A stretch of DNA of 42,447 bases from a virus. The notes under the pieces are model-generated. The model was not told where the DNA came from, searched no databases, and saw only the letters and a list, made by a program, of their open reading frames with translations. The stretch lies in IMG/VR virus record IMGVR_UViG_3300032006_001297, positions 1 through 42,447 of that record, one strand, 5' to 3'. Below, piece after piece: positions 18,392 through 42,187 of the stretch (positions within the stretch are counted from its first letter, which is position 1; every line of letters begins with the position of its first letter). A program made the translations under genes and the position numbers.

Positions 18392-18715
18392 TTAAAACAT
18401 CTTTCCATCTTGTGCTTCAATTTCATCTTTATATTCATCTGCGTATTCTTGTGCAACATAATCTTTAACTTTCTTATCAAATTTAACGCCTGGAAATTCT
18501 TTAGAATATTTCTTTGCACCATCATCTACAAGATATTTCCATAACTTCGGTGCCTTACTATGGTCATATTTTCCAGACTTCATTTTCCTTTGAATATTCT
18601 TAACAATGGGTACTAGTCTTTGTCTATACAAATCACTATCATTATCTATATATAATCTGAGTTCCATTGCTTCATCTTTCCAATTTTCTTTTACAAATGT
18701 CGTGAAATTTTTCAT
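18392..18715 (-). CDS. Conserved phage protein with capsid-targeting-like N-terminus
   Basis: A 107-residue helical protein beginning MKNFTTFVKENW, similar to the internal-protein leader described for the 23-27 kb block. The body (LRLYIDNDSDLYRQRLVPIVKN, KAPKLWKYLVDDGAKKYSKEF) resembles an uncharacterised family of marine T4-like phages. The start overlaps the upstream stop by one base. It may be a virion or head-internal protein. Confidence 0.6.
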   Translation of the reverse strand: MKNFTTFVKENWKDEAMELRLYIDNDSDLYRQRLVPIVKNIQRKMKSGKYDHSKAPKLWKYLVDDGAKKYSKEFPGVKFDKKVKDYVAQEYADEYKDEIEAQDGKMF

Positions 18716-22600: not shown

Positions 22601-23197
22601 CTAAATCTCCTTTGTTGTTTTTAATTTTTTACCGATTTCTTTAAAAACGGCCTTTGCCAATCTGGAGTTTTTCGTCATAAGTCCTTCTTTGAACTTTCCA
22701 AACTGACCTTTAATTACGAACTCTCTCATCTTTGAACCAGACATCCCCGCTACTCCCTCGGCGTCTGGGTCACGATCACCTGCCGAGACTACAGAAAAAT
22801 CTTGTATGTTGTCAAGGTCACTATCAACATACTTACTCATATTTCTTTGAAATTCTTTTACTCTATCACTACCGACTACGAAAATAACTTTTTTATAACC
22901 TTTTTTATTTAATGCGTCCAACGCAGTAAAAGGTGTATTTATTGATCTATCAGTATTTATAATGTTACCATATACATCTTTTAGAACTGCTATTTTAGTC
23001 TTAAACGATAATGGATTCTTTTTTTTATCTTCTGTTTTAGATGCAAATACCATTGGTATTCCACCTTCTTTTTTTGCAACCCAAATTATTTTATTAATTA
23101 ATTTTGCATGACCGATAGTTGGAGGATTCATCCTTCCAAAAGAAAAAACAACTGGCTTATTAATATTTTCTCTTAAAAAGTTTCTAAAAGTAATCAT
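22601..23197 (-). CDS. HxGH-type nucleotidyltransferase with capsid-targeting-like leader
   Basis: The preferred start is the ATG at 23197, which overlaps the upstream stop as ATGA behind AAGAGG; longer forms add an unrelated tail. The 198-residue protein begins MITFRNFLRE, then VVFSFGRMNPPTIGH (Thr27-Ile-Gly-His30), the HxGH-like nucleotide-binding motif of cytidylyltransferase/NMN-adenylyltransferase enzymes, and GMSGSKMRE (about 152-159) as the second signature. FVVGSDRVKEF lies between them. Substrate unknown: NMN and CTP-type reactions are both possible. The leader suggests packaging inside the capsid. Confidence 0.8.
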   Translation of the reverse strand: MITFRNFLRENINKPVVFSFGRMNPPTIGHAKLINKIIWVAKKEGGIPMVFASKTEDKKKNPLSFKTKIAVLKDVYGNIINTDRSINTPFTALDALNKKGYKKVIFVVGSDRVKEFQRNMSKYVDSDLDNIQDFSVVSAGDRDPDAEGVAGMSGSKMREFVIKGQFGKFKEGLMTKNSRLAKAVFKEIGKKLKTTKEI

Positions 23198-23427
23198 TGG
23201 CCTCTTGACATCTTTCCAAGTTTTAATCCTGCAAACATTGAAATCCATTTAATATCTTCGTCTGCTAATTGTTGTAATACTTCCTTTGGATATTTATCAA
23301 CCATGTTCTTTAACTTTTCACCTTGTTTGTATGACATCTTTTCAATGTTACCATATTCTTTGCGTAACTTGTCAATCATTCTAGGTGCAAAAGTTTTACC
23401 TTCTACCATTTCTTTGTAAGTTTTCAT
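23194..23427 (-). CDS. Small internal-protein candidate (MKTYKEMVEG leader)
   Basis: Start chosen at the ATG at 23427, because the protein then begins MKTYKEMVEGK, almost identical to the leaders of its neighbours; the longer form would use TTG. The 77-residue product is basic and helical (MIDKLRKEYGNIEKMSYKQGEKLKNMVDKYPKEVLQQLADEDIKW). Possible DNA-associated head protein. Neighbours on both sides carry the same leader. Confidence 0.7.
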   Translation of the reverse strand: MKTYKEMVEGKTFAPRMIDKLRKEYGNIEKMSYKQGEKLKNMVDKYPKEVLQQLADEDIKWISMFAGLKLGKMSRGQ

Positions 23428-23675
23428 TTTATATATTCCCAACCTTTTTTCAATAGTGCTTTTAACTTAGGAGAATCTTTCTCCATACGCATCACACTAT
23501 CACCATCATCAGAAAGATGAACAATAATAACGTCATCAGATTTTTCTTTCTTAATTTGTTTGGTCATTGTCCTGATAGATTTACTAGTATTGCTTCCAGA
23601 GTAACTACTTTCTTTCTCTCTCTTAACAATATCCTTTAACGTCTTATCTTCTAAGAATGTTTTATAAGTTTTCAT
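23424..23675 (-). CDS. Small internal-protein candidate (MKTYKTFLED leader)
   Basis: An 83-residue protein starting MKTYKTFLEDKTLKD. The leader matches the capsid-targeting sequence of T4 internal proteins (MKTYQEFI-type, then Glu where the prohead protease cuts). The remainder is Lys/Ser-rich, then DDVIIVHLSDDGDSVMRMEKDSPKLKALLKKGWEYIK. It overlaps both neighbours by four bases. Confidence 0.7.
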   Translation of the reverse strand: MKTYKTFLEDKTLKDIVKREKESSYSGSNTSKSIRTMTKQIKKEKSDDVIIVHLSDDGDSVMRMEKDSPKLKALLKKGWEYIK

Positions 23676-24022
23676 ACTTTTTTGATTTCTTTATTAGAGA
23701 TTAACTTTTTCCAGATTTTTGTATCAACATCTTCGATAGGTCCTGTGGTTTTTTTCTTTTTCATGTCATATCTAATTATATAATGTTTTCCTTTTTTCTC
23801 TATTACTTTCATATGACTTGCCGTACTTTTGCGAATACCTGTCCATTTAGAAATCATAATGGTGTTAGCAACTATCTCATACATCTCACCATTTTCAATT
23901 TCTTTTTTGACATCATCCATTAAACCTTCACTAATTTCTTTTTCAAATTGCCTATAGGTTTTCCGGTTTTCTAATATTTCTTCTTGTAAGTCAAGCCATG
24001 GCTGACAAATTAAATCATTCAT
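23672..24022 (-). CDS. Hypothetical protein of the internal-protein block
   Basis: A 116-residue protein whose start (ATG at 24022 behind GAGGAATAA) gives MNDLICQPWLDLQEEI; a KTYRQFEKEISEG segment at residues 21-33 resembles the neighbouring leaders but is internal. The C-terminal half has strands MYEIVANTIMISKW and KHYIIRYDMKKKK, which look like a small beta domain with a basic edge. No family recognised. Confidence 0.6.
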   Translation of the reverse strand: MNDLICQPWLDLQEEILENRKTYRQFEKEISEGLMDDVKKEIENGEMYEIVANTIMISKWTGIRKSTASHMKVIEKKGKHYIIRYDMKKKKTTGPIEDVDTKIWKKLISNKEIKKV

Positions 24023-24025
24023 AAT

Positions 24026-24244
24026 TTATTCCTCTTCTTCGTCCTCATGGTTTACACATGCTTCATCTTTTCCTTCTTCTTCATCATCAGATTTCCATTC
24101 TTTGTCAATTTCATCAAAAAACTTTTTCTTTTCTTCATCCGATAATTCTTCCGGACTATCAACTCCATACTTTTTTAACTTTTTATCAAAGAATTTTTGA
24201 TATTCTTCTTTACTGCCTTCTATAAATGATTTATAAGTTTTCAT
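24026..24244 (-). CDS. Small acidic internal-protein candidate (MKTYKSFIEG leader)
   Basis: A 72-residue protein starting MKTYKSFIEGSKEEYQKFFDKKLKKYGVDSPEELS, with an acidic tail of Glu and Asp. I recall similar short proteins in cyanophage T4-like genomes with the same leader. GAGGAGAAATA precedes the ATG, which overlaps the stop of the zinc-finger gene upstream. Likely head-internal. Confidence 0.7.
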   Translation of the reverse strand: MKTYKSFIEGSKEEYQKFFDKKLKKYGVDSPEELSDEEKKKFFDEIDKEWKSDDEEEGKDEACVNHEDEEEE

Positions 24245-24420
24245 TATTTCTCCTCTTGTAGGCCAACTGCTTCTAGTGACAAATTAATTTTTTCCATACT
24301 AATTTCTTTAAATCTATTCATAATATTTTTATATTTTTTATGATTCGGACAAGTACATTGCCAATTAAACAATGCTTCACATTTAGCACAATACCTCGAT
24401 TTCATTTTAGTAGTAGTCAT
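24244..24420 (-). CDS. 58-residue zinc-finger protein
   Basis: A short gene from the ATG at 24420 (AAAGGTA site) to TAA at 24246-24244. The product contains RYCAKCEALFNWQCTCPNHKKY, a Cys-x2-Cys, Cys-x-Cys and His pattern that could bind zinc, then a Lys/Asn-rich helical tail. It overlaps the upstream gene by 14 bases and the downstream ATG by one, which is typical of this operon and supports it being real. Function unknown. Confidence 0.65.
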   Translation of the reverse strand: MTTTKMKSRYCAKCEALFNWQCTCPNHKKYKNIMNRFKEISMEKINLSLEAVGLQEEK

Positions 24421-24607
24421 TACCTTTTGTCCAATCCTCTAGTTTATTTTTTTCATATTCTTCGTACTTATCAATAAATCTATGTATTATATTTCCCAAC
24501 TCTCTCAAATCCATTTCCTCAGTATTTTGACCAAAAACTTGTTGTCGTTCATACTTAGCAATATATCTGTTTAATACATCTTTTAAATGTTTTAAATCTT
24601 CAATCAT
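24407..24607 (-). CDS. Hypothetical helical protein
   Basis: The ATG at 24607 overlaps the stop of the oxygenase gene as ATGA, giving 66 residues (a TTG at 24622 is an alternative). The product is a charged helical protein (MIEDLKHLKDVLNRYIAKYERQQ ... ELGNIIHRFIDKYEEY), possibly a coiled-coil dimer. No family recognised. Confidence 0.55.
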   Translation of the reverse strand: MIEDLKHLKDVLNRYIAKYERQQVFGQNTEEMDLRELGNIIHRFIDKYEEYEKNKLEDWTKGNDYY

Positions 24608-25212
24608 CCCATTGTCCACCAATTATCTTTTCGTGCTATAGATGTTACCAAATGTATACGATCTTCTTCACCACCATTAAACTGACTGTGATAAAAAACT
24701 GTATTCGTATACCAAGCTCTACCGACAGGTAAATGTTTTACCTCATCTTCAATAACCATCTTAGCACCTATGTTTGTAATAATAGGAACATGAAGTCTTG
24801 GTTCAGGATCGCGATGCCAAGATAAGGAACTTCTTGGTGTTGACTTAATCAAACGTACTCGACCCAACTGACCTTCATATTCACTATCAACATATTGTGA
24901 TAATGTATCATAAACTTCTTTAAAATATGTTTTTTTAAACTCTGGAATAAAAATACCGTAATCTTTTTCATCAAGTTCTTGTTGTCTGATAACTTCTTGT
25001 CCATCAACCATTGTTCGATAAACACCACCAGTACCTTCATAAAAACATTCTGGAGCTTCTTGAAAATCTCTTTTTGTCAAACAAATCTGATGATATTTTT
25101 TATCAGCATTTAAAACTTGATCTGGCCAAGGTGCAATCTCTAAAACTTCTTCAAGTGCTTGTGCAAGTTTTATTTCATCAAATATAATAGGCAACTTCAC
25201 GAAATATTTCAA
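24604..25212 (-). CDS. 2-oxoglutarate/Fe(II) oxygenase-like protein (aspartyl hydroxylase type)
   Basis: The 202-residue protein contains SSLSWHRDPEPRLHVPIITN with the iron pair His133-x-Asp135, and a later FYHSQFNGGEEDRIHLVTSI with the distal histidine (His187) and the Arg that binds 2-oxoglutarate. This resembles the aspartyl/asparaginyl beta-hydroxylase family. The apparent start is TTG at 25212 with an AAAGGA site, because no ATG precedes the conserved region. Substrate unknown: a virion protein or a host protein is possible. It sits inside the internal-protein block. Confidence 0.75.
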   Translation of the reverse strand: MKYFVKLPIIFDEIKLAQALEEVLEIAPWPDQVLNADKKYHQICLTKRDFQEAPECFYEGTGGVYRTMVDGQEVIRQQELDEKDYGIFIPEFKKTYFKEVYDTLSQYVDSEYEGQLGRVRLIKSTPRSSLSWHRDPEPRLHVPIITNIGAKMVIEDEVKHLPVGRAWYTNTVFYHSQFNGGEEDRIHLVTSIARKDNWWTMG

Positions 25213-26424
25213 TTACCAATCCTTTGCAATAGTAAAGTTTGCATGAGAAAATTCAAGTCTATCCACTAACTTAACTGCACCACCTTTTGTATTAATAGCA
25301 ACAAAACCTTCTGGTGCCGTGACTTTAAAACCATTAGGTGTTTTAAGAAATGTTCCAATACTTTTAATTTTCTCTAATTGTTTTACAACCATATTTTTTG
25401 CATCAAGAATACCTAAATAGGTTGCCATAGTAAAATATAATTCATTTTTAAATTTTCTTAAAACTTTTTGTGCATCTTTTTGTATGTCTTTATATTTCTT
25501 TTTACCTTTATCAGATTTCTTTGTATCAATTTCTGTTGATAATCTATCTGTGTAATATTGTTCAAACTCTTTAACAAGATTTTTAGTATCAGCAATTTTT
25601 GAACCAGCACGAACTTTCGTATTAAAAAATACTTTCATCAATGGTGCCAGACCCCATTTTGTTTTATCTTTACCGAGTTCGTTTAAAAACTTACCTGCTT
25701 TTCCAGCAGCACCTGCAATTTGATTTATTTTTTTCTCTAATTTATTTACGTCTGCTGGACTAAATGTGACTGCGTTAGCAGTATCTAAGTAAGCATCATC
25801 AAACCAAACTCTTTTTGATTTCTTGAAAATATTTGCATCAACACCAAAAGATGCCTTTAATGAATCAATTGATTTTCCAGTATACTTTGTGTGCCACACC
25901 ACTCCAAGACTTGCCTTTCTTATTGTTGAGGCTAAGTCACTATCTTCTGGAACAGCATAGGTGATAGTATTAGGTCCGAAAGTCAACATACTGACATCAT
26001 CAATAGTTTGCTTTTTCAAATCACCTTTGGAAAACATAATGTCACCCTGATAGATGCCTTTCATTCCCAGATCAGGTAAAGTTTTCAATGCAACTTTTAA
26101 TTTATCTGAAGGACCCTCTGAACCGTGATTAGCATCAATGTCTGCTACTGTATAATTAATTTTAGGGACCTTATTAAAAAGTGATTTTGTTGCAACAAAA
26201 AACTTTCCGTTCTCTGGATTGATACCAGCAAAAATTGCTGGAGCACCATCCCACTTTACAGTCACATTCGTTTTACTTTTCCCTCCTGCTAACATATCCT
26301 TAAGAGAATTTAAAAACTGAATTGCTGTAGTCGCACCTTTTACACCATTGTTGATGATTTCATCTTCAAGGTGCTCCATGTGCGTATTTTTATCTTCATT
26401 TAATATTTCTTTGAATGATAACAT
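25213..26424 (-). CDS. KxDG ligase/nucleotidyltransferase-like protein with capsid-targeting-like leader
   Basis: The 403-residue protein begins MLSFKEILNEDK, matching the block leader (L-x-E cut site). It then shows a pattern seen in covalent nucleotidyltransferases: VTVKWDGAPAIFAG with Lys57-Trp-Asp-Gly (motif I), GIYQGDIMF (123-131, motif IV-like), GVVWHTKYTG (174-183), and PEGFVAINTKGGAVKLVDR (371-389, motif V-like with Lys385 and Arg389). In DNA and RNA ligases the motif I lysine carries AMP. I recall the family in T4-like phages as DUF6267, unassigned. The ligase fold is my inference from motif order. Confidence 0.7.
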   Translation of the reverse strand: MLSFKEILNEDKNTHMEHLEDEIINNGVKGATTAIQFLNSLKDMLAGGKSKTNVTVKWDGAPAIFAGINPENGKFFVATKSLFNKVPKINYTVADIDANHGSEGPSDKLKVALKTLPDLGMKGIYQGDIMFSKGDLKKQTIDDVSMLTFGPNTITYAVPEDSDLASTIRKASLGVVWHTKYTGKSIDSLKASFGVDANIFKKSKRVWFDDAYLDTANAVTFSPADVNKLEKKINQIAGAAGKAGKFLNELGKDKTKWGLAPLMKVFFNTKVRAGSKIADTKNLVKEFEQYYTDRLSTEIDTKKSDKGKKKYKDIQKDAQKVLRKFKNELYFTMATYLGILDAKNMVVKQLEKIKSIGTFLKTPNGFKVTAPEGFVAINTKGGAVKLVDRLEFSHANFTIAKDW

Positions 26425-26427
26425 GAA

Positions 26428-27531
26428 CTACCACTTAATAGTATTGTTATGTGAAATCAAAGGTTCATAATCCATGTAGTCAACCAATCTTTTAAAATTA
26501 TCTCCAATCCATTCTTTTGCCTGTTCAAATTTTTCTAAAATCCAGTTGACAAATTTAGTAAAAAGTTCCAGTACTTTTTCTTTCATTTTTTTATAAAAAT
26601 CTGCAACACGATCAACAAAACCTTCTGCTATTAATTCTTTTTCAATTTGTTCAAATCCTTCATCCATAACCATCTTGACACCTAAACCAACCGTTGCCCA
26701 AAAGTTATATATTTTTTTTCCTGTCTTGTCTGCACTTCCTTTGACGGATGATGATTTAAATTTAACGTCAGGTTTTACTTGACTAGCAATTTTCTTAACA
26801 TATTTATCTGATGATTTTGTGACAGTATGAAAATCAGATTTCGTTCCTTCATAATTTGTTATCAAAAATGAGGTTGCTGTTCCTTCATTTCTTCCAAATT
26901 TTTGTGATCCTGTCATTGCTTCAAAAGTAAACTCCTCTGCAAAAGCAGAATTTTTCTCAAATGCTTTTCTTAAATCTGTTTTAAATGCTTTATGAAAAGC
27001 ATCTATTTCTTCAAACACTTTTCCTTTTGCTGTTCCTATTAAATCACTTTTATTACCATGAACTTCTTTTCCTTTTTTATCTGTTAAACGAAAAGAAGTT
27101 TTTAACCCTTTTAATTGATTTTCTATTTTCTTTAATAAAACAGTATTATCAACTTTTTTCATCGCAGCATAAAAAGTTGCCTGTGCTTCTGCACGTTGAC
27201 CACTCATTAGTTGGGCATTTCCAGTTTTCAAAGAAATATAATTCTTTCCAATTATAATATCAGTCTTTGGTGTTTTAGTAGAACTAGGAACTTTACCATC
27301 AAAATAAGAAGCCCATTCTTTTGTTACTTCATATCTATTTGAAGGAAACTTACCCTTACCCGTTATCTTTTGTTTCTTCAATACTTTTTTAGCATTTGCA
27401 ACTGTAACTCTGGGATCTTTAAATTTTGCTTTCTTATCATTATTTGCAGCTGCAACTAGTGCTGCTTCCATTTCAAATGCACCAGATGTATCTGCTTCTT
27501 GTAAGTCTAACCAATCTTTATATGATTTCAT
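26428..27531 (-). CDS. Large internal or structural protein with MKSYKDWLDLQE leader
   Basis: A 367-residue protein starting MKSYKDWLDLQEADTSGAFEMEAALVAAANN; cleavage after LQE would fit the T4 prohead-protease rule. A middle domain (60-290) includes KTDIIIGKNYISLKTGNAQLMSGQRAEAQATFYAA, which resembles conserved phage head-associated proteins. The C-terminal 70 residues are helical and amphipathic (KEKVLELFTKFVNWILEKFEQAKEWI). The ILKTGN-like strand with Lys recalls a nuclease-type fold, but no catalytic set is evident. AGGAAAG precedes the ATG. Confidence 0.65.
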   Translation of the reverse strand: MKSYKDWLDLQEADTSGAFEMEAALVAAANNDKKAKFKDPRVTVANAKKVLKKQKITGKGKFPSNRYEVTKEWASYFDGKVPSSTKTPKTDIIIGKNYISLKTGNAQLMSGQRAEAQATFYAAMKKVDNTVLLKKIENQLKGLKTSFRLTDKKGKEVHGNKSDLIGTAKGKVFEEIDAFHKAFKTDLRKAFEKNSAFAEEFTFEAMTGSQKFGRNEGTATSFLITNYEGTKSDFHTVTKSSDKYVKKIASQVKPDVKFKSSSVKGSADKTGKKIYNFWATVGLGVKMVMDEGFEQIEKELIAEGFVDRVADFYKKMKEKVLELFTKFVNWILEKFEQAKEWIGDNFKRLVDYMDYEPLISHNNTIKW

Positions 27532-36636: not shown

Positions 36637-37938
36637 CTAAAGGGTTTGACCATCTCGAATAGCAACTGCGTCTGCTACTTCATTAAAATTGAATACAGGA
36701 TCAACTAATCCGTTTCTTTCAAATGCTACTTTCCTCATAAAACACGGAGCACAATTATCACAATGTCTTTTACCATCACCATAACAACTCCAAGTTAAAT
36801 CATACGGTACATCTAATGCAACTCCTTCCTTAACAATTTCATGTTTCATATAAGTTGCTATTGGCTGCAACAACTCAATCTTAACTTTATTTTGAGTAGC
36901 AAAAGGAAGTATATCATTGAACTTCCTACCAAACTCTTGCTCATTGTCTGGATATGCACCACTTTCTTCTAAATTACCACCGAATGCTATGTTACCAAAT
37001 TTGTTTGCTTCTGCATAAGCAGTTAAAACTGCCAACATTAATAGATTTCTACCAGACACCCAATCCATAGCATATTCAGTTCCTTCAATCTGTGACTTAT
37101 GATAAGTCCCTTCTGTAATAGTTCCACGCATAACATCAGGCATTTGAATAAATCTTAAATCAAATCCACCATGTTCTGCTATCTTTTTTATGAAACTAAC
37201 TTCTTTATCTTGAGCTAAACAATTATACATTAAATGCACAAGTGTTACATCATAACCTTTTGCCTGTAACATATATGCAACAGTTGTAGAATCTAATCCT
37301 GCTGAAGCACTAACCAAAACTTTTTTATTATGTTCTCTTGGTAAATCTTTTATTTTAATATGATCTGTCGAATAAGCCTTAGAAGAACAAACTTTCATAA
37401 TGGAATATGGTTTCATTGGTACAGAACATCCCATTAACATATCTGGTGTTGATGCAAACATAAAACCATAATTTTTTTTAATAAAATATATTGGTTTATA
37501 ATTACAAGCAAGCATTAATGATTCTTCATCAAAATATGCTATTGCATAACTTCCTTCTATCTTTTGTATATTCTCATAAAGACTACTAAAATTTCTTGGT
37601 TTCAAAACTTTAGGTAATACAATGGAGTCAATAACTTCATCAGAAAAGTGTTTATCATTTGCAATAACTCCATTATGCACAATACCTTGATATGGCTGCA
37701 GTATGTCTATTTCACTTTCTGCTTCAGTTGTCGGTGTGGCACGAAAATTACCTACAACTCGTTTTCCCAATAACAACTTATTAAATAAATCAGGATCAAT
37801 GTCCCCCATACCACGAAATTCTTCCCCATCAATCCAAAAACCATGTCCATCACGACCCCTTTCTCTACCATGACTAAGTATATGGAGTTTTTCATCCGTT
37901 GATATTTCTTCACCCGTCCATCCAACTATTGAACACAT
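36637..37938 (-). CDS. queC: Glutamine amidotransferase-QueC fusion (Gat-QueC)
   Basis: Start placed at the ATG at 37938 behind AGGAG, because the next residue is then the catalytic Cys2 of a class II glutamine amidotransferase (MCSIVGWTG); the longer form would bury it. The 433-residue protein has an amidotransferase half (RERGRDGHGFW, VGNFRATPTTE, IVHNGVIAN) and a QueC half: PP-loop VSASAGLDSTT (209-219), VSGRN, and the zinc set Cys385, Cys393, Cys396, Cys399. QueC converts carboxy-deazaguanine to preQ0. Similar fusions in Crenarchaeota are implicated in archaeosine synthesis and have been reported in some phages. Probably converts preQ0, free or in DNA, to an amidino or amido form. Confidence 0.9.
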   Translation of the reverse strand: MCSIVGWTGEEISTDEKLHILSHGRERGRDGHGFWIDGEEFRGMGDIDPDLFNKLLLGKRVVGNFRATPTTEAESEIDILQPYQGIVHNGVIANDKHFSDEVIDSIVLPKVLKPRNFSSLYENIQKIEGSYAIAYFDEESLMLACNYKPIYFIKKNYGFMFASTPDMLMGCSVPMKPYSIMKVCSSKAYSTDHIKIKDLPREHNKKVLVSASAGLDSTTVAYMLQAKGYDVTLVHLMYNCLAQDKEVSFIKKIAEHGGFDLRFIQMPDVMRGTITEGTYHKSQIEGTEYAMDWVSGRNLLMLAVLTAYAEANKFGNIAFGGNLEESGAYPDNEQEFGRKFNDILPFATQNKVKIELLQPIATYMKHEIVKEGVALDVPYDLTWSCYGDGKRHCDNCAPCFMRKVAFERNGLVDPVFNFNEVADAVAIRDGQTL

Positions 37939-37948
37939 AATATATCTC

Positions 37949-39241
37949 CTAAAATAATGACGCAGCTGATACAGTTGCATCCTTAACGGTTTCTCTGTTA
38001 GTCTTTTTTAAATAATCATCTAAAAACTTATGATTAACTTCTGCCTCGACATTTTTATTATCCAACTCATTAAAAAACTTTTCAATCAGATTAAAATTAT
38101 CAACTATCTTTTTTGGAAAGAACTCATTATAAATGTCTGACAATCCACAACTAAATATTCGATTTATATTTTCAAGATATTCTAATTGTAAATATAAATT
38201 ATGAAATGCTATCATGTTATTGAATTTACCAAACACTAATTTTTCTTCTCCGGTATCTTCATCAATTTTATAACTATTAAAAAAGTTATACGGGTCAACC
38301 AAATCTTCACATATTGGACACCTACAAGGCATTTTAAAATTTTTAGACATTTCTTTATAATGAATCTGATTAGACCATTTCATTGCTTCCATACCCAAAC
38401 CAACAATATATCTTGGCCTTGTCATATAACTACCATATACACAAGTACGATTCCAATATGTCGAATCATAAGTAATCTGTATATCAATATCCATTTTATC
38501 CAATAGCATTTGTATAAACTGAAAATATACCATGCTCTCATTAGATGTTACACCAAAGATATGAAACATCTTACACTTTTCTCTATCCAATTCACCACTC
38601 TTTAATAAAAACTTTAATGCAGGAAGAATACGACCTAGATTTCCATTTGTTCCACCATAGGCCCATCCTTCAAACTGATACTTTCCTATTTCTTTATACC
38701 ATTGAGAAATTTGTTCAACAGTCAAACCTTGCAGAACATTAAGAACCGTTGTATCAGTTCTAGTTCTATTCTCCATATAATACTTTGCAGATGCAACGGA
38801 TAAATCTAAACACTCCTGATAATCTTTATATGGGGATTTTGGTGTACCATCTTCTTTTTTTAGATGTAAAGTAAAAGAAGGTCTATCAAGGATAGGAAAT
38901 ATATCACCATTTTTTTCACTCCATTCAAGAGCTATTTTATCTGTAAACTTTTTAGGATCAACTGTACCATGTGCTAGATTGTACCCACCACTATCTACAA
39001 ATATAAGAGCATCATCTGCTTGGATTGTCTTTCTAAAATCTTTTTTTCGATAAGAAGTTCCAGCAGATATTAGCATAAAAAAATTCTTAAAATAAGACTC
39101 ATTATCTTTTTTATAAATCCTCAACGATTTCTTTTTATTAAAATCTTCTTGATTTTCTTGTGCTATTTCTTGGTCTGATTTTCCATAGAACATTCCCATC
39201 AAACCATCACTATATGCAGGTATATACAATGCTTTCTTCAT
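37949..39241 (-). CDS. dpdA: DpdA-like DNA guanine transglycosylase (TGT superfamily)
   Basis: The 430-residue protein has the TGT barrel features: FVDSGGYN with Asp83, TYDSTYWNR with the probable nucleophile Asp259, and a zinc site Cys306-x-Cys308-x2-Cys311 with His347. AYGGTNGN (195-202) corresponds to the GGLAVGE loop. Phage members of this family (DpdA) exchange guanine in DNA for a 7-deazaguanine, protecting it from restriction. The cysteine-to-histidine spacing (35) is longer than in tRNA enzymes. A tRNA target cannot be excluded, but the full precursor pathway next to it in a phage favours DNA. It is coupled to FolE by an ATGA overlap. Confidence 0.88.
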   Translation of the reverse strand: MKKALYIPAYSDGLMGMFYGKSDQEIAQENQEDFNKKKSLRIYKKDNESYFKNFFMLISAGTSYRKKDFRKTIQADDALIFVDSGGYNLAHGTVDPKKFTDKIALEWSEKNGDIFPILDRPSFTLHLKKEDGTPKSPYKDYQECLDLSVASAKYYMENRTRTDTTVLNVLQGLTVEQISQWYKEIGKYQFEGWAYGGTNGNLGRILPALKFLLKSGELDREKCKMFHIFGVTSNESMVYFQFIQMLLDKMDIDIQITYDSTYWNRTCVYGSYMTRPRYIVGLGMEAMKWSNQIHYKEMSKNFKMPCRCPICEDLVDPYNFFNSYKIDEDTGEEKLVFGKFNNMIAFHNLYLQLEYLENINRIFSCGLSDIYNEFFPKKIVDNFNLIEKFFNELDNKNVEAEVNHKFLDDYLKKTNRETVKDATVSAASLF

Positions 39242-39879
39242 TCATTAATGCCTTTCATGTTATTTAAAAGAGAAAAGAACTCTGCCTTAATTGCAGGATC
39301 ATCTCTAAATATACCTCTAACAACGGATGTCAACATATCACTTTCATGTTCTTTAACACCTCTTGCTGTCATACAAAAATGTTCAGCTTTAACAATAACT
39401 GCAACTCCTTTTGCTTCAGTCTCTTGCTCAATCATATCTGCAATTTGTTCAGTCATTTCTTCTTGAATCTGTGGCCTTGATGCAACCCAATCAACCATAC
39501 GATTAAACTTAGAAAGACCAACAACTTTCTTTCCTGGGAATATACCAACGTATGCTTTTCCTGTAATCGGTTGGAAATGATGTGCGCAAGTGGAATTAAT
39601 ACTTATAGGACCGGACATATAAATCTGGTCATATTGTTTTACATTTGGAAATGCAGTTACTTTTGGAGGGGGATAATATCTTCCACGAAAAATTTCATGG
39701 ACAAACATTTTTGCAACCCGTCTTGCTGTATCTTTTGTATTATGATCGTTTTGTGTGTCTATACCCAATGCTTCCAATACACCTTGAAAAGCATCTGCAA
39801 CTTCGTTTTCTATATCTTGTAAATCTCCAACATCTAAACAATCATAAATTGTATCATTGGCTTTCGTTGAAATCTTCAT
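39238..39879 (-). CDS. folE: GTP cyclohydrolase I
   Basis: The ATG at 39879 is chosen for its GGAG site; it gives 213 residues. The zinc ligands are visible: Cys98 in STCAHHF with His101, and Cys169 in HFCMTARGV. CAHH replaces the more usual CEHH. GLSKFNRMVDW and RPQIQEEMT are standard FolE segments. It makes dihydroneopterin triphosphate from GTP, the first step to 7-deazaguanine. It overlaps QueD by 26 bases and DpdA by four. Confidence 0.95.
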   Translation of the reverse strand: MKISTKANDTIYDCLDVGDLQDIENEVADAFQGVLEALGIDTQNDHNTKDTARRVAKMFVHEIFRGRYYPPPKVTAFPNVKQYDQIYMSGPISINSTCAHHFQPITGKAYVGIFPGKKVVGLSKFNRMVDWVASRPQIQEEMTEQIADMIEQETEAKGVAVIVKAEHFCMTARGVKEHESDMLTSVVRGIFRDDPAIKAEFFSLLNNMKGINE

Positions 39880-40363
39880 TATCAGCTCCATCATTAAAAA
39901 TGTTTCTCACTTTCCAATCACCATAATTATAACTTGCACTATTTGAACCATGTTCAAAAACTTCTACTCTTTTTAAATTTACTCTACCTTTTGTTTCTTC
40001 TATAATTTTCGGTGCAACATAATTATAAACATACTCGGCAAATTTCTCACAACCAACACCATCCATTGTAAGAACTTGTGCCATATTTTCATCATGTATT
40101 TTATATATATGTTCTATATCAGGATCATTTTTATCTATTAAAAGTTTATGGTCAAATGTTTGTTCAAGAAATGTTTTAATCCAACCACAGCCTCCAAAAT
40201 CATAAACCCAATTTCTTTCGTCAAGTTGATCTGTTTCAAATATAAAACGAAAACCCAAACTATACCCATGTAAATATTTACAATGACTGTTTGCCTTCCA
40301 TTGACGAAAACAACAACTTAATCCTCTCTCATTACCATAGGTCTTTGTACTTTGATATTTCAC
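39854..40363 (-). CDS. queD: 6-carboxytetrahydropterin synthase-like enzyme
   Basis: A GTG start at 40363 is preferred: it overlaps the preceding stop as GTGA and has a GGGGG site, and the product then opens MKYQSTKTYGNERG. The 169 residues include ANSHCKYLHGYSLGF, in which catalytic Cys28 and His32 are kept but the second zinc His of HGH is Tyr34; the more N-terminal His seems to be Cys. WVYDFGG and TFDHKLLI are other family marks. It would convert dihydroneopterin triphosphate to carboxytetrahydropterin, step two of the pathway. Confidence 0.85.
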   Translation of the reverse strand: MKYQSTKTYGNERGLSCCFRQWKANSHCKYLHGYSLGFRFIFETDQLDERNWVYDFGGCGWIKTFLEQTFDHKLLIDKNDPDIEHIYKIHDENMAQVLTMDGVGCEKFAEYVYNYVAPKIIEETKGRVNLKRVEVFEHGSNSASYNYGDWKVRNIFNDGADNEDFNESQ

Positions 40364-40815
40364 ATTGAACCCCCGATTCTTTCCCATGGATATACTATCC
40401 ATCTATATAACTGCTCATGTATATAATTTACACCATCATTATTTTTATTTCCAAACAATGCAACTAAAGAATAATCAGGATTTTTTTGAAATTCTGGTAA
40501 TTCTTTGATTGCCCTAAAAGTTGCACCAGTATCATACACATCATCTATAACAATAACATGAGGAAAGAACTTAGGATGCAATTCTTTATCGCCTGTTAAA
40601 TTTAACAACCACTCTGGTTTTTTATCCTGACCATCCCTTGACTGAAACTTTATAATACTCATTGGACAATTAAGAATATTACTCAAATGAGTTGCTATAG
40701 GTAAAGAACCACGATAAATACCTACGATATGTATATTAGATATATTTTTATATCGACTAGCAATATCACCTATATCTTTATAATATTCATCATAATAATA
40801 ATTATACTTATTCAT
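40360..40815 (-). CDS. Purine-type phosphoribosyltransferase
   Basis: The 151-residue protein carries the 13-residue PRPP motif VIVIDDVYDTGATF (87-100) and IHIVGIYRGSLPIA, the other conserved loop, with a VYPWER end typical of xanthine-guanine enzymes such as Gpt. It joins a base to PRPP to give a nucleotide. Its place between the pathway genes suggests salvage of guanine released by DpdA base exchange, or regeneration of GTP for FolE. That link is inferred from context. Confidence 0.82.
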   Translation of the reverse strand: MNKYNYYYDEYYKDIGDIASRYKNISNIHIVGIYRGSLPIATHLSNILNCPMSIIKFQSRDGQDKKPEWLLNLTGDKELHPKFFPHVIVIDDVYDTGATFRAIKELPEFQKNPDYSLVALFGNKNNDGVNYIHEQLYRWIVYPWERIGGSM

Positions 40816-41273
40816 ATCACGTTTTTATTTGTAATATTTAACATCTTTGCCAATACTACCAGTTGCTGTGATAACATTTTGGATTCCGGAGATTTAGATT
40901 CCAAATCCATAATATGATCTTTTGAAATTATACTGGATAACAATTGTGCTATTTCACTTCGTCCTTGTACCCATTGCTCAATGGTTTTCTTTGCTTCAAA
41001 GAATCTTTCACCACCTATCTCTTTTGCTTCATCATGGTATTGAACGAAATTTGTTAAAACACTTCTTACTAATTCTGATTTTGAAACTTTTAATTCAGTT
41101 GCTACTCTACCCAAAGCATTATCTAATTCGTGTGCAAGTCTAAACTTACCTAACCTAACAACATTTCCATTTTCATCATTAACAACTGCTACAAAAAGTT
41201 CTTTATCTTGAACAGCATCTTTTCCCGGTATTCCTTTTTGTCCTTTCTTATTTCTTTTGTTTTCTCCCATCAT
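40812..41273 (-). CDS. Ribbon-helix-helix-like protein, possible regulator
   Basis: Start taken at the ATG at 41273 (ATGA overlap with QueE); one at 41282 is also possible. The 153-residue protein has a basic head (NKRNKKGQKGIPG), then a strand and two helices, VVRLGKFRLAHELDNALGRVATELKVSKSELVRSVLTNFV, the pattern of a ribbon-helix-helix domain, then helical segments. It may regulate the surrounding cluster or bind DNA. Family not identified. Confidence 0.6.
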   Translation of the reverse strand: MMGENKRNKKGQKGIPGKDAVQDKELFVAVVNDENGNVVRLGKFRLAHELDNALGRVATELKVSKSELVRSVLTNFVQYHDEAKEIGGERFFEAKKTIEQWVQGRSEIAQLLSSIISKDHIMDLESKSPESKMLSQQLVVLAKMLNITNKNVI

Positions 41274-42187
41274 GTACCCCATTCATTTCCAAAAAGATTT
41301 AATTGTAACCTGGGACTATACTTATAACCATAACTCAATGCAATTTCTGCTATTTTCTTTTCTTCCATTTGATGATCTAATGCACCCTCTGGCATTAAAT
41401 AAATTGCATCTATCATAACTCCTGCTTTCTCATATTCTTTCAATGCGTTTGTTACTTCATACATACATGAATAATCTCTAACAACAAATTTAAGATACAA
41501 ATAAGACCCAGGCCAAGTGTTATATGATAACAATGCCTCTGGTACTATTGCATCAATCCACCGTTCACCACTATTTTGAAGTTTAGGAGATACAGACCAC
41601 GTTATTCCATGATAAGGTCTATTGATTGCATATTTTTCATAATAAGCAAGATACCTATCATGGTTGTCATTTTGAAAATCATCAAAATGATATTGTTGGG
41701 TTCCGTTTGTTTCAAATGTAACGTATCTTGTTTTTAAATCTGGATGTGTTATTAATTCACTTACTGCTGGTTGGAAACCTTTTAGTAATGGTTCACCACC
41801 GGTCATAACTAAATGAACACCATCATTTTCTTTGAGATCATCAGAAGCACCACGTTTTTCACCATAAAAGTCAAGAACATTCATTTTTTTAATGATGGTA
41901 TCAATGTCCTCATAGTTTGCAAGGTGTCCCCATTTCTTTCCCCAAGAAAAAGAACTATCACAACCAACTTGAGGTACTGGTAAATCTACAAGTGCCTTTG
42001 CATCAGGATAGTCTTGGTTATGAGGCATATTTTCTTTGGGTATCCATTTTGATCTATCTCTATCTTGACCGAAACCAGTACACTCAAAATTACACCCGAA
42101 CAAACGCAAAAAGAGAGATGGCACACCAACGTACCTTCCCTCTCCTTGAAGTGAGTAAAACATCTCGCTGTATCGTAATTTATTCAT
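41270..42187 (-). CDS. queE: 7-carboxy-7-deazaguanine synthase-like radical SAM enzyme
   Basis: The 305-residue protein opens YSEMFYSLQGEGRYVGVPSLF, a hallmark of QueE. The cluster motif is modified: Cys32-x3-Cys36 is followed by Thr-Gly-Phe instead of x2-Cys, and the third cysteine is probably Cys76 in VGCDSSFSW after a 39-residue insert. TGGEPLL is the SAM-binding GGE motif, and ETNGT is also present. It makes carboxydeazaguanine from carboxytetrahydropterin, step three. First gene of unit 1, with a promoter ending seven bases before the ATG. Confidence 0.9.
   Translation of the reverse strand: MNKLRYSEMFYSLQGEGRYVGVPSLFLRLFGCNFECTGFGQDRDRSKWIPKENMPHNQDYPDAKALVDLPVPQVGCDSSFSWGKKWGHLANYEDIDTIIKKMNVLDFYGEKRGASDDLKENDGVHLVMTGGEPLLKGFQPAVSELITHPDLKTRYVTFETNGTQQYHFDDFQNDNHDRYLAYYEKYAINRPYHGITWSVSPKLQNSGERWIDAIVPEALLSYNTWPGSYLYLKFVVRDYSCMYEVTNALKEYEKAGVMIDAIYLMPEGALDHQMEEKKIAEIALSYGYKYSPRLQLNLFGNEWGT

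What the first reader, a model, noticed from the sequence alone, without database searches (positions are those of the whole stretch)
25213..26424. A possible ligase-like enzyme packaged in the capsid
The protein has Lys57-Trp-Asp-Gly, a GIYQGDIMF strand and PEGFV...KLVDR, in the order of motifs I, IV and V of covalent nucleotidyltransferases (DNA/RNA ligases, capping enzymes). It also begins with the capsid-type leader. An injected ligase or capping-like enzyme could repair phage DNA or tRNA at entry. The family is, to my knowledge, not assigned a function.
Basis: partly seen in the sequence, partly recalled or inferred. Interest (0 to 1): 0.7.

Follow-up and report, generated by a model that had tools for sequence, protein, structure and literature searches.

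The report
Ligase-like enzyme with capsid-targeting leader
A protein of unknown function shared by hundreds of ocean viruses of bacteria is predicted to have the fold and active site of enzymes that join broken RNA or DNA, and in this virus it starts with a short tag like the ones that send helper proteins into the virus head for injection.

Summary
ORF 25213-26424(-) is real. It is a full-length member of Pfam DUF6267 (PF19782, E 4e-118), a family of unknown function in T4-like marine phages. The motif observation holds, with one correction: GIYQGDIMF is motif III, not IV; motif IV is EGFV and motif V is K385. Across 102 long and 57 short relatives (about 30% identical between the two groups), K57, D59, G60, K80, D128, E372, G373 and K385 are essentially invariant. 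AlphaFold models of both groups (pLDDT 88 and 90) independently give 50 of 50 top PDB alignments to covalent nucleotidyltransferases. RNA ligases lead (Z up to 8.7; T4 Rnl1 7.5, Rnl2 7.4), ahead of DNA ligases. Sequence profiles do not detect this, there is no OB domain, and a helical domain sits between motifs IIIa and IV, so it would be a new, divergent branch. Leader: leaderless relatives begin MAKNTHLEHLED; here ten residues, MLSFKEILNE, precede that core. In S-CREM2 such leaders mark virion proteins (4 of 5; p=0.011). Leaderless DUF6267 proteins were not detected in virions; the leadered form has not been tested. Most likely a lysyl-AMP-forming RNA-ligase-type enzyme, packaged in leadered lineages. 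Catalysis, substrate and injection are inferred.

The parts
25213..26424 (-). DUF6267 protein, 403 aa; predicted covalent nucleotidyltransferase of RNA-ligase type
   Evidence: Pfam PF19782 3.7e-118 over residues 13-401; AF2 pLDDT 88.4, pTM 0.83; VIA-align top 50 all polynucleotide ligases
26395..26424 (-). Capsid-targeting-like leader MLSFKEILNE, residues 1-10, presumed prohead-protease site after E10
   Evidence: absent from leaderless relatives that start MAKNTHLEHLED; pLDDT under 50 for residues 1-14
26362..26388 (-). Conserved N13-x-H15-x-x-H18-x-E20-D21 at the start of the core; role unknown
   Evidence: 94-97% of A2 rows; 56 of 56 covered rows in A5
26245..26256 (-). Motif I, K57-W-D-G60 (predicted adenylated lysine K57)
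   Evidence: K57 101/102, D59 102/102, G60 101/102 in A2; invariant in A5
26185..26187 (-). Motif Ia-like invariant K80
   Evidence: 102/102 and 57/57; assignment to Ia by order and spacing
26032..26058 (-). Motif III, GIYQGDIMF (residues 123-131), acidic D128
   Evidence: D128 102/102; D122 57/57 in short forms; strand 124-132 in the model
25957..25980 (-). FGPNTITY (149-156), strand at the motif IIIa position, invariant Y156
   Evidence: Y156 102/102 and N152 101/102; strand 154-159
25882..25893 (-). Invariant H178-T-x-Y181, family-specific
   Evidence: 102/102 and 57/57
25375..25758 (-). Helical domain (residues 223-350) inserted between the IIIa region and motif IV; reduced in the short forms
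   Evidence: six helices in the model; short-form alignment and model
25300..25314 (-). Motif IV, P-E372-G-F-V375
   Evidence: E372 and G373 in 100 of 100 non-gap rows; 57/57 in short forms
25258..25272 (-). Motif V, K385-L-V-D-R389
   Evidence: K385 and R389 100/100; V387 where KxK ligases have the second Lys
26428..27531 (-). Upstream neighbour, 367 aa, leader MKSYKDWLDLQEAD, conserved W...TPKTD...SLK.G.AQLMSG (nuclease-like signature, not tested)
22601..23197 (-). Cytidyltransferase/NMNAT-like protein with leader MITFRNFLRE, GRMNPPTIGH and GMSxSKMR
   Evidence: PF01467 1e-5, phrog_3041 5e-54; the same PHROG as DUF6267 (phrog_455) covers both domains; homologue found in 117 of 184 DUF6267 loci, within about 5 kb
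24026..24244 (-). Small leader-bearing protein MKTYKSFIEG
23424..23675 (-). Small leader-bearing protein MKTYKTFLED
23194..23427 (-). Small leader-bearing protein MKTYKEMVEG

Best explanation
DUF6267 is a divergent covalent nucleotidyltransferase of the RNA-ligase type. K57 attacks ATP to form a lysyl-AMP, with D59, D128 and E372 binding metal and ribose and K80, K385 (and perhaps R389) binding phosphates. The AMP then activates a 5'-phosphate end so that a nick, most likely in RNA such as cleaved tRNA, is sealed. The helical domain inserted between motifs IIIa and IV probably takes the substrate-binding role that Rnl1 and Rnl2 give to their C-terminal helical domains. In this phage lineage a ten-residue leader sends the protein into the prohead core, where prohead protease would remove it, so that it can enter the cell with the DNA. 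In leaderless lineages it would act only after synthesis in the cell. Shown here: gene, family, conserved residues, predicted fold, leader as a discrete extension. Inferred: adenylylation, ligation, RNA as substrate, packaging of this protein, injection.
For: Two independent AF2 models, long form and a short form from a 57-sequence alignment about 30% identical to the long forms, each give 50 of 50 best VIA-align rows as covalent nucleotidyltransferases. Long form: N. gruberi RNA ligase Z 8.7 (3.6 A, 181 residues), REL1 7.9, Trl1 7.6, T4 Rnl1 7.5, Rnl2 7.4. Short form: N. gruberi RNA ligase 8.3, T4 Rnl1 8.1. Carbonic anhydrases that topped the Foldseek list for the long form drop out of the aligned list. 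Motif order and the IV-to-V spacing (13, like E240-K253 in the proven RNA ligase YspRLIG1, PMC11494293) agree. The motif residues are the most conserved in the family. RNA ligases rank above DNA ligases in both searches, and there is no OB domain. Leader: clean N-terminal extension; in S-CREM2 4 of 5 leadered proteins are in the virion against 47 of 213 others, p=0.011. Leadered cytidyltransferases, in S-SM1 and S-SZBM1 directly next to DUF6267, are reported in virions of S-SM1, S-SZBM1 and S-CREM2.
Against: Z of 7 to 9 is in the range where the aligner warns of common arrangements, and Foldseek gives no PDB match under E 0.001. HMMER and hhalign profiles find no significant link to Rnl1, Rnl2 or gp30; reversed controls score alike. 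Motif III has Asp, not Glu, and motif V lacks the second Lys. No superposition of active-site residues could be made; register rests on order, spacing and range ends. No DUF6267 protein has been seen in a virion: leaderless S-SZBM1_141 and S-CREM2 gp87 are not in the published lists. One large clade has MFSFKGFITK, without the Glu. RNA as substrate rests only on fold ranking and domain make-up.
Confidence: 0.6

Rival explanations
1. It is the replicative or repair DNA ligase of these phages: an OB-less DNA nick sealer that fills the place of T4 gp30 in a replication module next to UvsX and gp41.
For: A review states that cyanomyoviruses lack a gp30 homologue and may have an unrecognised distant one (PMC2984593). 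Nine DUF6267 genomes or long contigs have no ATP- or NAD-dependent DNA ligase and no Rnl1 or Rnl2 family member, while T4 has three ligases and no DUF6267. The gene sits beside replication genes.
Against: Phages DLP6 and S-CRM01 carry both DUF6267 and a PF01068 DNA ligase domain. No OB domain, which DNA ligases use to clamp DNA. RNA ligases rank higher in both structure searches. Host ligase can serve.
Confidence: 0.17
2. It is a nucleotidyltransferase with another acceptor: it moves AMP, GMP or an NAD-derived group to a protein, RNA 5' end or small molecule of the host, possibly working with the neighbouring NMNAT-like enzyme.
For: DUF6267 and the NMNAT-like domain lie in one PHROG and appear fused in an S-PM2 protein, and neighbour each other in most loci. 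Conserved family-specific residues N13/H15/H18/E20/D21 and H178/T179/Y181 have no evident ligase counterpart.
Against: The ligase set of acidic and basic motif residues is retained; closest structures are strand-joining enzymes.
Confidence: 0.15
3. The fold is that of a ligase but the protein is no longer an enzyme, or the likeness is convergent; it serves as a head or scaffold-core component.
For: Leader; neighbours detected in virions; no significant sequence-profile link to ligases; second motif V Lys lost.
Against: Active-site residues are the most conserved positions over very diverged relatives; leaderless forms persist, so a head role cannot be the shared function.
Confidence: 0.08

Closest known systems
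Pfam DUF6267 (PF19782) / phrog_455
   Same: Full-length member, E 3.7e-118; the family is found in at least 467 phage records, nearly all T4-like cyanophages.
   Different: Family has no assigned function; the nucleotidyltransferase reading is new here.
T4 RNA ligase 1 (Rnl1, gp63; PF09511) and RLIG1
   Same: Nucleotidyltransferase fold (Rnl1 Z 7.5 to 8.1), KxDG, motif IV-V wording EGYVAVMKDGSHFKIK versus EGFVAINTKGGAVKLV, spacing 13.
   Different: No detectable sequence homology; Asp in motif III; KLV not KIK in motif V; helical domain inserted before motif IV, not appended after motif V; leader.
T4 RNA ligase 2 and Naegleria RNA ligase (PF09414)
   Same: Among the best structural matches (Naegleria Z 8.7 and 8.3; Rnl2 7.4 and 6.5).
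   Different: No profile match; no C-terminal Rnl2 domain, and no N-terminal OB domain as in the Naegleria enzyme.
T4 internal head proteins (IPI, IPII, IPIII, Alt) with capsid targeting sequence
   Same: Short N-terminal leader ending in a presumed gp21-type site; T4 internal proteins are injected and counter host restriction (PMC3012670).
   Different: Virion presence not shown for this protein; predicted cargo is a ligase-like enzyme.
T4 gp30 DNA ligase
   Same: Same nucleotidyltransferase core; DUF6267 sits among replication genes.
   Different: No OB domain; DUF6267 coexists with PF01068 ligases in DLP6 and S-CRM01.

Membership tests
DUF6267 (PF19782) | Score above Pfam gathering cut-off over the full model | tested here: met
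   395.6 bits against 27, model 1-376 of 376
Covalent nucleotidyltransferase superfamily | Nucleotidyltransferase (ATP-grasp-like ligase) fold | tested here: met
   Two predicted models, 50/50 best rows are superfamily members, Z up to 8.7 and 8.3; moderate Z, model not experiment
Covalent nucleotidyltransferase superfamily | Motif I KxDG with invariant Lys | tested here: met
   101/102 and 57/57
Covalent nucleotidyltransferase superfamily | Acidic residue in motif III | tested here: met
   D128 invariant; Asp rather than the usual Glu
Covalent nucleotidyltransferase superfamily | Motif IV EG and motif V Lys in order after motif III | tested here: met
   E372-G373 and K385 in all covered rows
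Covalent nucleotidyltransferase superfamily | KxK pair in motif V (usual, not universal) | tested here: not met
   K385-L-V387; V387 or Ile conserved; the RLIG1 paper names one motif V Lys, Lys253. I therefore claim the fold and working likeness, and claim superfamily membership only as probable.
Covalent nucleotidyltransferase superfamily | Lysyl-NMP intermediate | not testable with these tools
   needs a labelling assay
Rnl1 (PF09511) or Rnl2 (PF09414) family | Detectable family profile match | tested here: not met
   no Pfam match; hhalign not above reversed controls
Rnl1 or Rnl2 family | Helical domain C-terminal to motif V | tested here: not met
   chain ends 14 residues after R389; helices lie between IIIa and IV
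DNA ligase or mRNA capping enzyme | OB-fold domain after the nucleotidyltransferase domain | tested here: not met
   no strands after residue 386 in the model
T4-type internal head protein | N-terminal capsid targeting leader with protease site | tested here: met
   MLSFKEILNE before a core that starts directly in leaderless relatives; resemblance of sequence only, cleavage not tested
T4-type internal head protein | Present in mature virion and injected | not testable with these tools
   no proteome of a phage with a leadered DUF6267 was found; leaderless forms not detected

The most novel reading that the evidence does not exclude
These phages carry a head-packaged nucleic-acid repair kit: a ligase of a new branch (DUF6267), an NMNAT-like enzyme, in many relatives a polynucleotide-kinase-like P-loop kinase, and a nuclease-like partner, bearing the same removable leader and encoded side by side, injected with the DNA to rejoin RNA or DNA cut by host defences before any phage gene is expressed.
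Probability: 0.25. Interest if true: 0.87.

Novelty: new variant of a known kind. Interest (0 to 1): 0.64.

Why it matters
DUF6267 is in hundreds of sequenced T4-like cyanophages, pelagiphages and relatives, with no function and no published proposal that I could find. Naming its catalytic lysine makes it directly testable. It would give these phages a strand-joining enzyme where most of those checked have no recognisable one, which bears on the open question raised in PMC2984593 of whether cyanomyoviruses hide distant ligase homologues. It would also add an enzyme of RNA or DNA repair to the short list of head-packaged phage proteins, and the leader gives a simple rule for predicting other packaged enzymes in marine phages.

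Tried and rejected
Sequence-only proof of homology to ligases: phmmer and profile HMMER against PDB (only spurious helix and toxin-repeat hits), hhalign of full, core and combined profiles against Rnl1, Rnl2 and gp30 profiles with reversed controls: not significant. The best Rnl1 hit did align motif IV-V correctly, P 0.05, no better than a reversed control.

Weak Pfam hits to SWI2_SNF2 and HBL rejected: far below cut-off.

Foldseek alone gave no significant PDB match. Carbonic anhydrases topped the long-form list with TM about 0.07 and vanished on realignment.

'DUF6267 simply replaces the DNA ligase' was favoured after and weakened by DLP6 and S-CRM01. S-CREM2 gp190, annotated DNA ligase, is DUF6433, not a ligase.

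Leader as a property of the whole family rejected: 66 of 122 distinct N-termini fit the strict pattern; several clades are leaderless or have Lys for the Glu.

PDB families not appearing in the VIA lists (for example RLIG1) are not excluded.

Full report
What is there. The window is a 42-kb virus record (IMG/VR) of a T4-like phage: DNA polymerase, UvsX, gp41 helicase, gp59 loader, clamp, RegA-type repressor. The ORF at 25213-26424(-) encodes 403 aa and is a full-length DUF6267 protein. The family occurs in at least 467 phage records, mainly Synechococcus and Prochlorococcus T4-like phages plus Pelagibacter, Methylophilales and Stenotrophomonas phages, and in many IMG/VR contigs. I found no paper on it.

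Motifs. Alignment A2 (102 sequences) and a separate alignment of short relatives, A5 (57 sequences; about 30% identical to the long ones), keep the same residues: K57, D59, G60, K80, D128, Y156, H178, T179, Y181, E372, G373, K385, R389 (counts). The order and character are those of motifs I, Ia, III, IIIa, IV and V of covalent nucleotidyltransferases. Two departures: Asp for Glu in motif III, and KLV for KxK in motif V. The IV-V segment reads like T4 Rnl1 (EGYVAVMKDGSHFKIK, sequence). The characterised RLIG1 family gives a precedent for a diverged RNA ligase; its viral member has motif IV Glu240 and motif V Lys253, the same spacing of 13 (PMC11494293).

Fold. AF2 gave pLDDT 88.4 and pTM 0.83 for the window protein and 90.4 and 0.85 for a short form. 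VIA-align of Foldseek's top 1000 PDB chains returned only polynucleotide ligases in the best 50 rows for both, RNA ligases first. Foldseek itself was not significant. Z values are moderate, so the weight comes from the uniformity of two lists, from two models, together with the motif residues. Against viral models, the only strong hits look like family members, several of them named cytidyltransferase-like because of a second domain. Sequence profiles do not link the family to ligases. Architecture: NTase strands 53-210, a helical domain 223-350, NTase strands 357-386, a short end helix. No OB domain, no C-terminal helical domain.

Leader. Relatives such as S-SZBM1_141 begin MAKNTHLEHLED; this protein has MLSFKEILNE in front of DKNTHMEHLED. 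In the window six leaders of this type lie between 23197 and 27531, and one more at 18715. T4 internal proteins use a conserved capsid targeting sequence (PMC3012670). To test whether such leaders mean packaging in this phage group, I matched annotated S-CREM2 N-termini (all but the portal protein's, which fell between fetched pieces) to the published virion list (PMC10665884): 4 of 5 leadered proteins are in the virion, against 47 of 213 others, one-sided Fisher p=0.011. The pattern was chosen after looking at examples, so this p is optimistic. The four are an SAM hydrolase, an APH-like kinase, a cytidylyltransferase and a small protein. Leadered cytidyltransferases are also reported in virions of S-SM1 (PMC3037559) and S-SZBM1 (PMC9146016). 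The authors of these proteomes caution that abundant proteins may co-purify. The DUF6267 proteins of S-SZBM1 and S-CREM2 are leaderless and are not in the virion lists, as the leader rule predicts; this is also what one would see if DUF6267 is never packaged.

Context. Around DUF6267 the loci carry a cytidyltransferase/NMNAT-like gene (117 of 184 loci), and in 56 a P-loop kinase of the Zeta_toxin/AAA_33 group, often with the leader, as in MKSFEQILSEGLYDPG. A kinase beside a ligase recalls end-healing and sealing in T4 RNA repair (established knowledge; Pnkp and Rnl1). The window itself has no such kinase.

Ligase content. Five complete phages and four long contigs with DUF6267 have no PF01068, PF01653, PF09414 or PF09511 match, while T4 has three ligases and no DUF6267. 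Two further phages have DUF6267 together with PF01068, so it is not simply the missing DNA ligase.

Conclusion. I rate the nucleotidyltransferase fold and active site about 0.9 likely, lysyl-AMP chemistry about 0.75, RNA-end joining about 0.5, and packaging of the leadered form about 0.6. It works like an RNA ligase on the evidence, but it is not a member of the Rnl1 or Rnl2 families as they are defined.

Noticed in passing
window 22601-27531: Run of six genes with T4-type capsid leaders (MKTYKSFIEG, MKTYKTFLED, MKTYKEMVEG, MITFRNFLRE, MLSFKEILNE, MKSYKDWLDLQE), a likely internal-protein cluster.
   Followed up: partly
window 26428-27531: Upstream neighbour family with conserved W...TPKTD..IG....SLK.G.AQLMSG..E, which looks like a PD-(D/E)XK-type nuclease core; no Pfam or PHROG match.
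   Followed up: partly
L185:9742-10404 and 56 DUF6267 loci: Zeta_toxin/AAA_33 P-loop kinase encoded next to DUF6267, often leader-bearing; possible polynucleotide kinase partner.
   Followed up: partly
S-CREM2 gp190, L272:4930-5433 (OR473000, 144929-145432): Annotated DNA ligase but matches only DUF6433 (1e-30); probably a misannotation.
   Followed up: yes
S-CREM2 gp12, L270:7704-10313: Virion-detected protein annotated Cas9/Csn1 carries an internal leader-like LRFASFMAEAA at about residue 17.
   Followed up: no
DUF6267 clade including L097-L140, N-terminus MFSFKGFITK: Large DUF6267 clade keeps the leader's start but has Lys, Gln or another residue where the protease-site Glu should be; perhaps a lost or altered signal.
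   Followed up: no
window 36637-42187: QueC-like, GTP cyclohydrolase and QueE-like genes, suggesting 7-deazaguanine modification of the phage DNA.
   Followed up: no
window 24604-25212: Aspartyl/asparaginyl hydroxylase-like gene (PF05118, 7e-10) directly downstream of DUF6267; adjacent in several relatives.
   Followed up: partly
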